Shown here: positions 12,283 to 47,664 of the stretch, one piece after another
Layout of the letters: each line of letters opens with the position of its first letter
Position numbering within the stretch: the first letter of the stretch is position 1
Origin: a virus
Reading direction: 5' to 3' (one strand)
Length of the DNA: 60,113 bases
IMG/VR virus record: IMGVR_UViG_3300030105_001581
Location: 1-60,113 of that record
The notes under the pieces: generated by a model
What the model was told of the DNA's origin: nothing
What the model saw: the letters and a program-made list of their open reading frames with translations, nothing else
Databases searched by the model: none
Position numbers and translations under genes: made by a program

Positions 12283-12323
12283 CCACCAGGTAAACACCTC
12301 GCCCATTGGCGGGGTTTTGGTGG
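12283..12323 (+). repeat. Nested hairpin module 1
   Basis: Outer stem CCACCA (12283-12288) pairs with TGGTGG (12318-12323). Inside it CCTCGCC pairs with GGCGGGG around the loop CATT, followed by TTTT. It lies just after a stop codon. The same two-level design recurs at 12605 and 13202 with different inner stems. It may act as a terminator, attenuator or mRNA stabiliser. Confidence 0.65.
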
Positions 12324-12356
12324 TAAACAAACACAATTAATTTAAATCAAACCAAC

Positions 12357-12604: not shown

Positions 12605-12643
12605 CCACCAATTAAACCGCTGCCTTAGGGCGGCTTTTGGTGG
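12605..12643 (+). repeat. Nested hairpin module 2
   Basis: Outer stem CCACCA (12605-12610) with TGGTGG (12638-12643). Inner stem GCTGCC with GGCGGC (one T-G pair), loop TTAG, then TTTT. Same design and outer sequence as module 1, but a different inner stem, so the structure rather than the sequence is conserved. Confidence 0.65.
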
Positions 12644-12670
12644 TATAAATTAACACTTAAATAAATAAAC

Positions 12671-13201: not shown

Positions 13202-13243
13202 ACCACAGACAAACAGTCCATCAGTTGATGGGCTTTTTGTGGT
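13202..13243 (+). repeat. Nested hairpin module 3
   Basis: Outer stem ACCACA (13202-13207) pairs with TGTGGT (13238-13243). Inner stem GTCCATCA pairs with TGATGGGC (one T-G pair), followed by five T. Relative to modules 1 and 2 the outer stem has changed on both sides in a compensating way, which supports a real RNA structure. Confidence 0.65.
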
Positions 13244-13264
13244 ATAAACCAACAACAAATAGCA

Positions 13265-15192: not shown

Positions 15193-15525
15193 ATGAAAGA
15201 CAATAAACTAATAGCAGAATTTATGAGATTTCCCCAACAATCTGATATAGTAGATGACAGAACAACCGCATACTATATTGGAGATGTAATAAAAGCAAAT
15301 AATGTAAATAATAAAAACGAAGACAATGTGTTTCATCCAGAGGATATGATGTTTCATTCCTCATGGGATTGGCTGATGCCAGTAGTGAATAAATGTTTTG
15401 ATACACATTTTGAGCATAGTGATGATGTAACTTTTGCATTAAATGATGCATTAGTTACGACCAACATTCATGCATTATATGAAGCAGTACTAGAATTTAT
15501 AAAACGTACTAAAAAAAGTACATAA
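15193..15525 (+). CDS. Conserved phage early protein, 110 aa
   Basis: Starts MKDNKLIAEFMRFPQQSD and contains FHSSWDWLMPVVNKCFD and ALVTTNIHALYEAVLEFIKR. The words NKLIAEFM, SWDWLMPVV and NI-ALY-AVVEFI are typical of a short protein family common in Bacteroidetes phages; no function is known. One base separates it from the preceding gene. The last seven codons lie in a 21-bp tandem repeat whose second copy follows the stop. Confidence 0.6.
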   Translation: MKDNKLIAEFMRFPQQSDIVDDRTTAYYIGDVIKANNVNNKNEDNVFHPEDMMFHSSWDWLMPVVNKCFDTHFEHSDDVTFALNDALVTTNIHALYEAVLEFIKRTKKST

Positions 15526-15544
15526 CGTACCAAAAAAAGTACAG
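15503..15544 (+). repeat. Two-copy 21-bp tandem repeat, GTAC-A7-GTAC hairpins
   Basis: Two consecutive 21-base units (15503-15523, 15524-15544) differ at two positions. Each has GTAC, a pyrimidine, seven A and GTAC, so each can fold into a 4-bp hairpin with an A-rich loop. The first unit encodes the C-terminus of the upstream protein; the stop codon spans the unit boundary. Confidence 0.6.
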
Positions 15545-15586
15545 AGCAACATGGTGGATTGTTTAGGTTCGATTCCTAATTGCTCA
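15544..15586 (+). ncRNA. tRNA-like minihelix 1 (acceptor stem plus T-arm)
   Basis: GAGCAA (15544-15549) pairs with TTGCTC (15580-15585). Directly inside the 3' strand is a perfect T-arm: TTAGG, the 7-base loop TTCGATT, CCTAA. The D and anticodon arms are replaced by 13 bases beginning CATGG. The order of T-arm then acceptor strand then A is exactly that of a tRNA 3' half. A second element at 16287 keeps the fold with different stems. I infer a processing or regulatory RNA in the early transcript; it is not a functional tRNA. Confidence 0.6.
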
Positions 15587-15589
15587 CAA

Positions 15590-15603
15590 TGAGAATATTC
15601 TCA
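15590..15603. promoter_or_regulatory. 14-bp palindrome TGAGAATATTCTCA, copy 1
   Basis: Perfect palindrome 4 bases after tRNA-like element 1 and 23 bases before the ATG at 15627. Identical copies are at 16334-16347 and 47640-47653. It could be a protein-binding operator or, in RNA, a hairpin. Confidence 0.6.
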
Positions 15604-15626
15604 GAGATTAAATAAACCAACAAACA

Positions 15627-15833
15627 ATGACAATTATATTTACAATACAAGATATCCTAGATATATCACAAAATCAAATAGATGGCAACTCAGACCTTTT
15701 CACTAAGGGACTGAGTGAAGAGGATGCAAAACAACTTTTGCAGAGCATAGAATCGACCATTAAACAAGAAGCATCAGATATGATTCACGAATTAGTGTAC
15801 GATGATTTAATGGTTATCAATGATCACAATTAA
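15627..15833 (+). CDS. Early protein, hypothetical, 68 aa
   Basis: Starts MTIIFTIQDILDISQNQIDG after the leader TAAATAAACCAACAAACA. Acidic, helical (LSEEDAKQLLQSIESTIKQE), ending DHN. It sits directly downstream of the tRNA-like element and palindrome, so it is a candidate for control by them. No family recognised. Confidence 0.5.
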   Translation: MTIIFTIQDILDISQNQIDGNSDLFTKGLSEEDAKQLLQSIESTIKQEASDMIHELVYDDLMVINDHN

Positions 15834-15848
15834 TTAATTTAAACCAAC

Positions 15849-16097
15849 ATGGAATATAAAGTAATTAGAGAAACACGATTTAATTGTTTCGATAAAGAAA
15901 TTGGCAAATCAGTTTTCTTAGCTGAATGGTCAACAGAATTAGATGATATCATTTCTATTCTTGATGACACTACAATTTACCATACAGAAGAAAAAGAAAC
16001 TTCATATGGTCATGTAGAATGGGAAGCAATATTTAGAGATAAAGATTTTGCAGATACCAGTTTTCTTGATGAAAGCCAATTAATTAAAAACGATTAG
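15849..16097 (+). CDS. Early protein, hypothetical, 82 aa
   Basis: Starts MEYKVIRETRFNCFDKEIGK after TTTAAACCAAC. Acidic alpha/beta protein with ILDDTTIYHTEEKETS and WEAIFRDKDF. No cysteine cluster and no membrane segment. The next gene begins 2 bases after its stop. Function unknown. Confidence 0.5.
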   Translation: MEYKVIRETRFNCFDKEIGKSVFLAEWSTELDDIISILDDTTIYHTEEKETSYGHVEWEAIFRDKDFADTSFLDESQLIKND

Positions 16098-16099
16098 CT

Positions 16100-16285
16100 A
16101 TGAAATCAGTACAAGATGATTTTTGGAATCACAGCATCAATCCTATTACTGGATATGTTGTAGAAAAGCATGAGATGAAAAATCTTGTTTCTAGTTACAA
16201 ATATATTACAACACCTTTTGTAATCCCCAAAGAAATAAAAATACGACCATATAGTATTTTATATGATATAATAATTAGTGCCTAA
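16100..16285 (+). CDS. Early protein, hypothetical, 61 aa
   Basis: Starts MKSVQDDFWNHSINPITGYV and ends with a hydrophobic YSILYDIIISA. No leader motif, but it follows the previous stop by 2 bases, so it may be translated by coupling. The tRNA-like element 2 begins one base after its stop. No family recognised. Confidence 0.45.
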   Translation: MKSVQDDFWNHSINPITGYVVEKHEMKNLVSSYKYITTPFVIPKEIKIRPYSILYDIIISA

Positions 16286-16286
16286 A

Positions 16287-16330
16287 GGATAGCATGGTTG
16301 CATGGAGGAATTCGATTTTCCTCCTATCCA
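16287..16330 (+). ncRNA. tRNA-like minihelix 2 (acceptor stem plus T-arm)
   Basis: GGATAG (16287-16292) pairs with CTATCC (16324-16329). The T-arm is GAGGAA, loop TTCGATT, TTCCTC. The linker CATG-GTTG-CATG can form a small third hairpin. Compared with element 1, both stems have changed sequence but keep pairing, while the T-loop and the start of the linker (CATGGT) are conserved. This covariation is strong evidence for selection on RNA structure. It is followed by ACA and the identical palindrome. Confidence 0.65.
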
Positions 16331-16333
16331 CAA

Positions 16334-16347
16334 TGAGAATATTCTCA
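16334..16347. promoter_or_regulatory. 14-bp palindrome TGAGAATATTCTCA, copy 2
   Basis: Same perfect palindrome as at 15590, in the same position after the tRNA-like element. The following AGATTAAA leader is also shared, so the whole cassette was probably duplicated while the stems of the tRNA-like part drifted. Confidence 0.6.
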
Positions 16348-16365
16348 GAGATTAAACAAACAAAC

Positions 16366-16434
16366 ATGAACGCACTAATATTTTTAGCACCTAGTTTTTT
16401 ATATTTAATAGTATTAATTTTAATAAGCAAATGA
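16366..16434 (+). CDS. Single-TM micropeptide, 22 aa
   Basis: ATG after AACAAACAAAC. The first 20 residues are MNALIFLAPSFLYLIVLILI and almost all of it is one hydrophobic helix. Its TGA overlaps the next ATG by 4 bases (ATGA). A leader-like or membrane-active peptide is plausible; alternatively it only serves to couple translation of the next gene. Confidence 0.45.
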   Translation: MNALIFLAPSFLYLIVLILISK

Positions 16435-16658
16435 CAAAATTAAGAGGAACATATCAGAGGGTAGAAAAAGAGTATACCCTTTCTGTTGATTACACTTACG
16501 AGTGGGAAGATGCAGAATGGGATTATCCTGGAAGTGCTGATTTGGAAGTCACTGAGGCATACCTAAATTCAGAGACTATACCTATGGCGTTTTATCACGA
16601 GTATATTCATGATAAGGTTGAAGATGATTTAAATGAACACGCAAAAGACAATATATGA
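16431..16658 (+). CDS. Early protein, hypothetical, 75 aa
   Basis: Starts MTKLRGTYQRVEKEYTLSVD. Acidic and Trp/Tyr-rich (YTYEWEDAEWDYPGSADLEV). Overlaps both neighbours by 4 bases, so it is tightly coupled. No family recognised; the acidic aromatic surface is similar in character to small inhibitor proteins, which is only an impression. Confidence 0.5.
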   Translation: MTKLRGTYQRVEKEYTLSVDYTYEWEDAEWDYPGSADLEVTEAYLNSETIPMAFYHEYIHDKVEDDLNEHAKDNI

Positions 16659-18199: not shown

Positions 18200-18611
18200 A
18201 CTGCGCCTTGAAGAAATATTTCAAGAGGCTAAGACAGATGGAGTCAGTAAAAATATTAGCAGTAAGCTATACGAGGCATATATGAATAAGGGAGTAAAGA
18301 TTATCAAGGATACTCACTCAACAAGAATAGAAACATCTGGAATTAATTACTATCAGGAGTTGTCTGTAGAGCAGTATAAACTATTTAATAAGGGGTGGCT
18401 TTTTGGGGTGTATACAATAGCCTTAAAAAAATATCAACTTCACTTAGAAAGGCTCGATCTAAAAGTGCGTGATGAAATGAACTCAAGTAAATCTATGAAG
18501 CTGTTAGATGGACACAAGACTCATAGACATACACTTAATAAAAAACATGAAGATGTGTCAAAAAAGTTACATGAATTAACCAAAAATAAAACCAACAATT
18601 ATGAGCAATAA
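18189..18611 (+). CDS. Hypothetical protein of the DNA operon, 140 aa
   Basis: Open from a TTG at 18189 that overlaps the previous gene by 11 bases; the first in-frame ATG is at 18282 (MNKGVKIIKD), so the N-terminus is uncertain. The segment between them reads like protein (LEEIFQEAKTDGVSKNISSK), which favours the upstream start. The rest is helical and basic (YQLHLERLDLKVRDEMNSSK). It sits between the DnaA-like protein and the annealing protein. No family recognised. Confidence 0.5.
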   Translation: MFSKLRLEEIFQEAKTDGVSKNISSKLYEAYMNKGVKIIKDTHSTRIETSGINYYQELSVEQYKLFNKGWLFGVYTIALKKYQLHLERLDLKVRDEMNSSKSMKLLDGHKTHRHTLNKKHEDVSKKLHELTKNKTNNYEQ

Positions 18612-47336: not shown

Positions 47337-47615
47337 TTATGCGTTAACAATACTTGTAACTGCTTTTGGAAGCGCTACATTATAATAGGGATTCGTCCAA
47401 GAGGTAGTTAAAGAATTTTCAACTGCATTTTTAATAGCATCATAAACATCATGCGCAACCTGAGCTGCAGTAGTTATTGTAGTTGTAGTTCCATCAACAT
47501 AATCGACAGTCACAGTAGTTGCTGTCGCAGTAGCTGTTCCAATGTTTTTAATACCATTTACACTGATCAATTGGCCTGTAATTGGCGCGTTTGATACATA
47601 AAGAAATTTAGTCAT
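47337..47615 (-). CDS. Small Thr/Val-rich virion protein, 92 aa
   Basis: Starts MTKFLYVSNAPITGQLISVN; beta-rich with TATATATTVTVDYVDGTTTT and an amphipathic helix AAQVAHDVYDAIKNAVENSL. Small proteins of this composition occur near the capsid genes of marine phages and may be decoration proteins. It forms its own transcription unit, with promoter TATATTTG plus the TGAGAATATTCTCA palindrome upstream and a strong terminator downstream, so it is probably made in a distinct, possibly high, amount. Confidence 0.55.
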   Translation of the reverse strand: MTKFLYVSNAPITGQLISVNGIKNIGTATATATTVTVDYVDGTTTTITTAAQVAHDVYDAIKNAVENSLTTSWTNPYYNVALPKAVTSIVNA

Positions 47616-47638: not shown

Positions 47639-47664
47639 ATGAGAATATTCTCATCACAAATATA
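47639..47664 (-). promoter_or_regulatory. Late promoter box with operator palindrome, copy 3
   Basis: On the minus strand TATATTTG (47664-47657) is a perfect -7 box. Two bases downstream lies ATGAGAATATTCTCAT (47654-47639), a 16-bp perfect palindrome containing the 14-bp one found twice in the early region. A protein bound here would cover the expected transcription start, so repression is the simplest model. Confidence 0.65.

What the first reader, a model, noticed from the sequence alone, without database searches (positions are those of the whole stretch)
15544..16347. Two tRNA acceptor/T-arm minihelices with covarying stems in the early transcript
Elements at 15544-15586 and 16287-16330 each consist of a 6-bp acceptor-like stem, a 12-13 base linker starting CATGG, and a T-arm with the canonical 7-base loop TTCGATT placed directly before the 3' acceptor strand. 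Both stems differ in sequence between copies (GAGCAA/TTGCTC versus GGATAG/CTATCC; TTAGG/CCTAA versus GAGGAA/TTCCTC) but remain paired. The D and anticodon arms are absent. Acceptor plus T-arm is the known minimal substrate shape of RNase P and RNase Z, so these may be processing signals that cut the polycistronic early mRNA, or decoys of tRNA-binding enzymes. Each is followed by the same palindrome and leader, defining a repeated cassette. I know of no described family of this kind.
Basis: partly seen in the sequence, partly recalled or inferred. Interest (0 to 1): 0.9.

Follow-up and report, generated by a model that had tools for sequence, protein, structure and literature searches.

The report
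Miniature tRNA mimics between phage genes
Between genes of this phage, and of many unrelated phages and prophages, sit roughly 44-base RNA elements shaped like the top half of a tRNA, most likely signals that let the host's tRNA-trimming enzymes cut long phage messages into separate mRNAs, a device known from mitochondria but, as far as I could find, not described in phages.

Summary
The two elements are real and significant. A covariance model finds both copies in the window (E 2e-11 and 2e-9). It also finds them in related Flavobacteria-type phages (all on the early strand), in unrelated phage contigs (up to 13 copies per contig) and in bacterial genomes, in several cases beside phage genes, including Mu-like ones. 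In a non-circular test, 36 of 86 sequence-selected places had a complete T-stem plus a flush acceptor stem (control 0.8). The coaxial stack is 11-13 bp, like the 12 bp of tRNA. The linker holds a D-loop mimic (UGG closed by two covarying pairs), so the D arm is reduced, not absent. Elements sit after one gene's stop codon and before the next ATG. Relatives carry elements of very different inner size in the same gene slot; acceptor and T-arm stay. The bases after the acceptor favour C-N-A but rarely CCA, which blocks RNase Z. Best explanation: cis-acting tRNA mimics that host RNase P and/or RNase Z cut, separating early mRNAs (tRNA punctuation). The structure is shown; cleavage is inferred. Nothing in Rfam or in ten literature searches describes them.

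The parts
15544..15585 (+). mini-tRNA element 1: acceptor 15544-15549/15580-15585, D-loop mimic CATGGTG 15550-15556, T-stem 15563-15567/15575-15579, T-loop TTCGATT 15568-15574
   Evidence: CM E = 1.6e-9, not in the training set
15586..15589 (+). ACAA after the acceptor, equivalent to tRNA positions 73-76 (N-C-N-A, not CCA)
   Evidence: family preference
15590..15626 (+). leader: hairpin TGAGAATATTCTCA (15590-15603) and A-rich stretch up to the ATG at 15627
15193..15525 (+). upstream ORF (110 aa, unknown); its stop codon is 18 nt before element 1; its orthologue in L009 is also followed by a mini-tRNA element
15627..15833 (+). downstream ORF (68 aa, unknown)
16100..16285 (+). upstream ORF (61 aa, unknown); its stop codon ends 1 nt before element 2
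16287..16329 (+). mini-tRNA element 2: acceptor 16287-16292/16324-16329, D-loop mimic CATGG 16293-16297, T-stem 16305-16310/16318-16323, T-loop TTCGATT 16311-16317
   Evidence: CM E = 1.6e-11 (in the training set)
16330..16333 (+). ACAA after the acceptor (N-C-N-A)
16334..16365 (+). leader: hairpin TGAGAATATTCTCA (16334-16347) and A-rich stretch up to the ATG at 16366
16366..16434 (+). short ORF read from the sequence (22 aa, hydrophobic, MNALIFLAPSFLYLIVLILISK); its stop overlaps the ATG of the 75-aa ORF at 16431
   Evidence: (read by eye)

Best explanation
The elements are cis-acting mimics of the acceptor/T-arm half of tRNA, with a D-loop stub that can dock on the T-loop to form the tRNA elbow. 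They lie between genes of co-transcribed operons. The host's tRNA maturation enzymes would treat them as pre-tRNA: RNase P cuts at the 5' side of the acceptor stem, giving the upstream mRNA a 3' end just after its stop codon, and RNase Z cuts after the base that follows the acceptor stem, giving the downstream mRNA a new 5' end beginning CAATGAG..., protected by the leader hairpin. The anticodon arm is not needed for this and has been lost or varies freely. Shown here: conserved structure, stack length, elbow mimic, position between stop and start codons, strand, same-slot exchange of elements with different inner parts, and a C-N-A trailer that is rarely CCA. Inferred: that RNase P and/or RNase Z cut them, in which order, and that this separates or stabilises the mRNAs.
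For: Non-circular tests: of 86 viral places chosen only by ATGGT-N6-12-GGTTCGATTCC, 77 pair the three unselected outer T-stem pairs (control 9.8), 38 have a flush 6-bp acceptor (control 2.2) and 36 both (control 0.8, max 4). Bacterial genomes: 33 of 80 both (control 1.0). Bases flanking ATGGT pair in 64 of 86 (expected 39.7, reached by none of 10,000 shuffles), a covarying mini D-stem. Stack length 11-13 bp in 88 of the 94 places where a stack could be measured, although longer was allowed, matching the 7+5 bp stack that RNase P binds and measures from the elbow (PMC4919913). 131 matches: 95.9% of cells paired against 55% shuffled, changes on both sides at all 14 pairs. Strand: all matches in the window's relatives are on the early strand. 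Position: inside ORFs of 100 aa or more in 19 of 124 elements against 441 of 620 random places; median 18.5 nt after a stop and 42 nt before an ATG. L196 has six gaps of the form stop, mini-tRNA, hairpin, Shine-Dalgarno-like GGAG, ATG. The same gene is preceded by a 12-nt-inner element in L008 and a 45-nt-inner one in L063/L069. The L022 tRNA-like element lies between a Bacteroidota-type promoter and the leader hairpin that relatives have directly behind their promoter. C-N-A trailer in 58 of 124: CAA 28, CTA 17, CGA 9, CCA 4; CCA is the main antideterminant of RNase Z (PMC4919913). RNase P is known to cut tRNA-like structures, phage M3 and C4 RNAs and mRNAs (PMC11143913).
Against: No transcript end, cleavage or host enzyme was tested. 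Several tRNA-binding factors besides RNase P and Z read the elbow (ribosome L1 stalk, CCA-adding enzyme, tRNA-modifying enzymes). The mimics lack a consistent G at +1 (50 of 124 G) and T at -1 (40 of 124), so typical RNase P cleavage-site preferences are weak. Many neighbouring gaps in the same operons have no element, so it is not needed at every gene border. Similar leader hairpins also occur without the element.
Confidence: 0.62

Rival explanations
1. Translation element: the tRNA-like fold right after a stop codon and before a start codon binds the terminating ribosome (elbow contacts) and promotes reinitiation at the next gene.
For: Very regular placement between stop and start codons; elbow features conserved; Bacteroidota mRNAs often lack a Shine-Dalgarno (general knowledge).
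Against: In L196 the elements are followed by a Shine-Dalgarno-like GGAG and a start codon a few dozen nt away. Full-length tRNAs and tRNA-like elements occupy the same kind of slot, which suits excision better than ribosome docking. Some elements lie in long non-coding gaps (L267).
Confidence: 0.12
2. Regulatory or decoy RNA: the fold binds a tRNA-handling protein (aminoacyl-tRNA synthetase, EF-Tu, tRNA-modifying or elbow-binding protein, or a tRNA-targeting defence factor) to regulate the mRNA or titrate the protein.
For: T-arm plus elbow are sufficient ligands for several enzymes (general knowledge; PMC4919913 for elbow readers).
Against: No fixed acceptor identity: all acceptor and most T-stem pairs vary freely. 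No anticodon, so not a decoy for anticodon nucleases. Position tied to gene borders, which a trans-acting decoy would not need.
Confidence: 0.13
3. Only RNase P (not RNase Z) acts, leaving the tRNA-like fold at the 5' end of the downstream mRNA as a stabilising cap, without release of the element.
For: RNase P is known to cut polycistronic mRNAs (PMC11143913); all determinants lie in the acceptor/T stack.
Against: The C-N-A trailer that is rarely CCA and the leader hairpin placed just behind the element point to a second cut there, but indirectly.
Confidence: 0.08
4. Decaying tRNA genes: phage tRNA genes that lost their anticodon arm and are drifting.
For: In the window's family elements range from full tRNAs (L046, Met) through odd tRNA-Leu-like forms to the mini form, so a tRNA origin of some is likely.
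Against: Drift does not keep 96% of pairs with changes on both sides at every pair, 11-13 bp stacks, copies between successive genes or the C-N-A trailer.
Confidence: 0.05

Closest known systems
t-elements of plant mitochondria (and the tRNA punctuation of mitochondrial transcripts)
   Same: tRNA-like folds in transcribed spacers that mark mRNA ends for endonucleolytic cleavage, alongside tRNAs removed by RNase Z and protein-only RNase P (PMC8003010)
   Different: Here in phages and prophages, in a ~44-nt acceptor/D-stub/T-arm form, in multi-copy sets with different stem sequences, with a C-N-A trailer and often a leader hairpin
tRNA-like domain of tmRNA
   Same: Acceptor, T-arm and a D-loop with little or no D-stem (general knowledge); precursor cut by RNase P (PMC11143913)
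   Different: No tag reading frame, no pseudoknots, no CCA, no fixed alanine identity; embedded in mRNAs; no tmRNA hit by ARAGORN in the scanned loci
Viral 3' tRNA-like structures (TYMV) and mascRNA of MALAT1
   Same: tRNA mimicry with RNase P cleavage (TYMV: PMC11143913); RNase P and RNase Z for mascRNA (general knowledge)
   Different: Those end a genome or transcript once; these lie repeatedly between genes of DNA phages
RNase P-cleaved phage RNAs (M3 RNA, C4 RNA of P1/P7) and polycistronic mRNAs of E. coli
   Same: Phage or polycistronic RNA as non-tRNA substrate of RNase P (PMC11143913)
   Different: To my knowledge those are singular structures without a shared tRNA-elbow architecture or a covariance family
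Phage-encoded tRNA genes
   Same: Same half-molecule and 12-bp stack; full tRNAs or tRNA-like forms sit in similar slots in relatives
   Different: No anticodon arm, rarely an encoded CCA; the mini form is generally not called by ARAGORN

Membership tests
tRNA | Acceptor stem and T-arm stacked to 12 bp with T-loop TTCRANN | tested here: met
tRNA | D-loop GG that docks on the T-loop | tested here: inconclusive
   Conserved UGG closed by covarying pairs; docking itself not testable
tRNA | Anticodon arm | tested here: not met
   Inner part of 12-13 nt in the window and mostly 9-14 nt in mini elements; ARAGORN finds no tRNA in the window and, in 30 loci with mini elements, two calls in all, one of which (L151:6876-6969) overlaps an element
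tRNA | Encoded CCA | tested here: not met
   4 of 124; true tRNA genes of some bacteria also lack it
Mitochondrial t-elements / tRNA punctuation | tRNA-like fold located at gene borders in polycistronic transcripts | tested here: met
   (co-transcription inferred from gene layout)
Mitochondrial t-elements / tRNA punctuation | mRNA ends coincide with the element borders | not testable with these tools
   needs RNA end mapping
RNase P substrates | Cleavage at the 5' side of the acceptor stem | not testable with these tools
   needs in vitro assay
RNase Z substrates | No CCA directly after the base that follows the acceptor stem | tested here: met
   CCA in 4 of 124, C-N-A in 58 of 124
RNase Z substrates | Cleavage after the base that follows the acceptor stem | not testable with these tools
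   needs in vitro assay or end mapping
Rfam families (4227) | Match at gathering score | tested here: not met
   none; permissive scan of 15400-16500 gave only hits far below gathering scores
tmRNA | tmRNA gene with tag peptide | tested here: not met
   ARAGORN

The most novel reading that the evidence does not exclude
A previously undescribed, very widespread class of phage RNA elements, present in phages of several bacterial phyla, recruits host RNase P and RNase Z to cut polycistronic phage mRNAs between genes: a phage counterpart of mitochondrial tRNA punctuation, achieved with about 44 nt.
Probability: 0.55. Interest if true: 0.92.

Novelty: new variant of a known kind. Interest (0 to 1): 0.86.

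Why it matters
It would show that many phages organise their operons by hijacking an essential host enzyme that a cell cannot easily lose, giving a general rule for phage mRNA ends and stability. It gives genome annotation a recognisable gene-border signal that tRNA finders and Rfam miss. It also provides a large natural set of minimal RNase P / RNase Z candidate substrates (elbow, 12-bp stack, no anticodon arm, C-N-A trailer) with which the substrate rules of both enzymes could be tested across phyla.

Tried and rejected
DNA similarity searches of the window region and of L151 and L196 in the phage collection gave nothing. The exact palindrome pattern in viral contigs gave no hit. A first pattern scan (51 stretches) was mostly chance, with L087 the one clear hit. 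Attachment site or DNA recombination site: rejected, because stems change in compensation and only pairing is kept. Transcription terminator: no T-run follows the stems. Decaying tRNA: rejected for the mini form. Promoter replacement upstream of the 364-aa gene was first read from L022 and L052, but L022 keeps its promoter upstream of the tRNA-like element, and the short L052:3225 element is, read by eye, better seen as a full-size tRNA-like form, so only the weaker statement is made. Leader hairpins as an obligate partner of the element: they also occur alone. The nearest relatives L003 and L004 lack the upstream region because the held sequence ends there, so absence there says nothing. Structure prediction of proteins was not used: the flanking ORFs are unknown small proteins. 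Ten literature searches found no description; the library holds only open-licence papers and no preprints, so a report elsewhere is possible.

Full report
What is in the window. The window is a 60-kb virus record of a tailed phage with GroEL, whose portal protein is 74% identical to that of an uncultured podovirus from Manatee Spring and about 45% to Flavobacterium phages of the elemo group; its primase/helicase has hundreds of relatives in IMG/VR. The host is therefore probably a member of the Flavobacteriia (inference). Two elements lie in the early operon of small unknown genes, at 15544-15585 and 16287-16329, each followed by ACAATGAGAATATTCTCAGAGATTAAA and an A-rich leader. Element 2 starts one base after a stop codon and element 1 eighteen bases after one; the next start codons are 41 and 36 bases downstream. 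ARAGORN and Rfam see nothing.

From two copies to a family. A descriptor scan of 80 relatives found 25 similar elements, all on the early strand, none in shuffled sequence. Their inner part ranges from 8 to 56 nt, from full tRNA (Met in L046) through odd tRNA-Leu-like forms to the mini form of the window.

Non-circular statistics. At 86 viral places chosen only by ATGGT-N6-12-GGTTCGATTCC, 77 pair all three unselected outer T-stem pairs (9.8 when downstream flanks are swapped), 38 have a complete flush 6-bp acceptor (2.2) and 36 have both (0.8, maximum 4 in 1000 swaps). The bases on either side of ATGGT pair in 64 of 86 cases against 39.7 expected, none of 10,000 shuffles reaching this: A-T 33, C-G 11, T-A 9. 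This is a reduced D-arm with the UGG triplet in its loop, as in the G18-G19 motif that docks on the T-loop of tRNA (comparison from general knowledge). In bacterial genomes 33 of 80 places pass both tests against 1.0 in swaps. The continuous stack of T-stem and acceptor is 11-13 bp in 88 of the 94 elements where it could be measured, although up to about 20 was allowed; for 28 more the script found no qualifying stack. tRNA has 12, and RNase P measures this stack from the elbow (PMC4919913).

Covariance model. A model of 17 elements finds window copy 2 at 1.6e-11 and copy 1, not in the training set, at 1.6e-9. It finds relatives only on the early strand, and whole contigs with 13, 7 and 6 copies. 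In 131 collected matches 95.9% of cells are standard pairs against 55% in shuffles, and all 14 pairs show changes on both sides; this alignment is fitted to the model, so carry the statistical weight. No Rfam family matches the positive loci scanned.

Where they sit. Elements avoid genes (19 of 124 inside ORFs of 100 aa or more; random places 441 of 620) and lie a median 18.5 nt after a stop and 42 nt before an ATG. In L196, a GC-rich contig, six gaps read stop, element, hairpin TTCGC..GCGAA, GGAG, ATG (a seventh model match lies in the following non-coding stretch). L087, with WhiB-like and SSB-like proteins (read by eye), has element, hairpin, ATG. Named carriers include Dysgonomonas sp. 216, where the element is just upstream of a MuA-like transposase, Chryseobacterium kimseyorum, Carboxylicivirga linearis and Lachnospiraceae. 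A weak match (E = 0.011) in the cultured Elizabethkingia phage TCUEAP3 fills the 55-nt gap between a stop codon and MuA.

Natural experiments. The same gene is preceded by a 12-nt-inner element in L008 and by a 45-nt-inner element in L063 and L069. The 110-aa gene upstream of window element 1 has an orthologue in L009 that is also directly followed by an element, with different but still paired stem sequences. Upstream of a 364-aa gene most relatives have a Bacteroidota-type promoter followed by a leader hairpin; in L022 a tRNA-like element lies between promoter and the same leader. What is kept is the acceptor/T half; the inside is free.

Mechanism. RNase P and RNase Z both read what is kept here: the elbow and the acceptor/T stack. 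The bases after the acceptor are C-N-A in 58 of 124 elements (CAA 28, CTA 17, CGA 9, CCA 4); CCA is the main antideterminant of RNase Z (PMC4919913). I therefore propose that host RNase P cuts before, and RNase Z after, the element, separating early mRNAs, and that the leader hairpin protects the new 5' end. RNase P is known to act on phage M3 and C4 RNA and on mRNAs (PMC11143913), and t-elements mark cleavage sites in plant mitochondria (PMC8003010). Cleavage in phages is inferred, not shown. Rivals (reinitiation, protein binding, RNase P alone, tRNA decay) are listed with their tests.

Limits. Model E-values are rough. Patterns with ATGGT and TTCGATTCC bias the sample towards these letters. 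Many genome loci were not proven to be prophages. The literature library lacks preprints and most subscription journals.

Noticed in passing
window 47640-47653: Third exact copy of the palindrome TGAGAATATTCTCA, without a tRNA-like part; on the minus strand it starts 3 nt behind a TATATTTG box (47664-47657), in front of the ORF 47337-47615(-), as if at a promoter-made 5' end.
   Followed up: partly
window 12312-12335, 12632-12655, 13231-13254, 18397-18415: Another repeated early sequence, GGCTTTTKGTGGTATAAAC(CAACA), the first three copies shortly before start codons.
   Followed up: no
window 15504-15542: Two copies of ACGTACYAAAAAAAGTAC overlap the end of the ORF 15193-15525 and lead into element 1.
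   Followed up: no
L267:779-1259: Four mini elements with different stems within about 480 nt of a non-coding gap in a MAG labelled Bathyarchaeota, separated by AGTGAAGT-like repeats; possibly viral.
   Followed up: partly
L282, L275, L268 upstream of the elements: Runs of GGCATGG / GGCAAGG / GGTATGG-like repeats directly precede elements in several bacterial-genome loci; role unknown.
   Followed up: no
L281:5471-5515 (-): A mini element followed by a hairpin and an ATG in a 3-Mb contig of the archaeon Haloferax marinum (E = 1.4e-7).
   Followed up: partly
L047, L049, L067, L079, L082 between the ~247-aa and ~104-aa genes: A conserved motif TTAGCCTCAGAGG...GGTTCAAATAGACTGAGGCA before the start codon, likely a separate structured leader RNA.
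   Followed up: no
L011, L022, L043, L049 and other relatives, intergenic: Repeated leader hairpin GTGTCTTCAAAGACAC shortly before start codons, behind promoters, behind tRNA-like elements or alone.
   Followed up: partly
L151:705-9237: Many elements per contig (13 model matches on the whole contig), each followed by a conserved GCTGGCATCNTACTGC-like stretch before the ATG.
   Followed up: no
window 16366-16434: 22-aa hydrophobic ORF (possible membrane microprotein) directly behind element 2, overlapping the next start codon.
   Followed up: no
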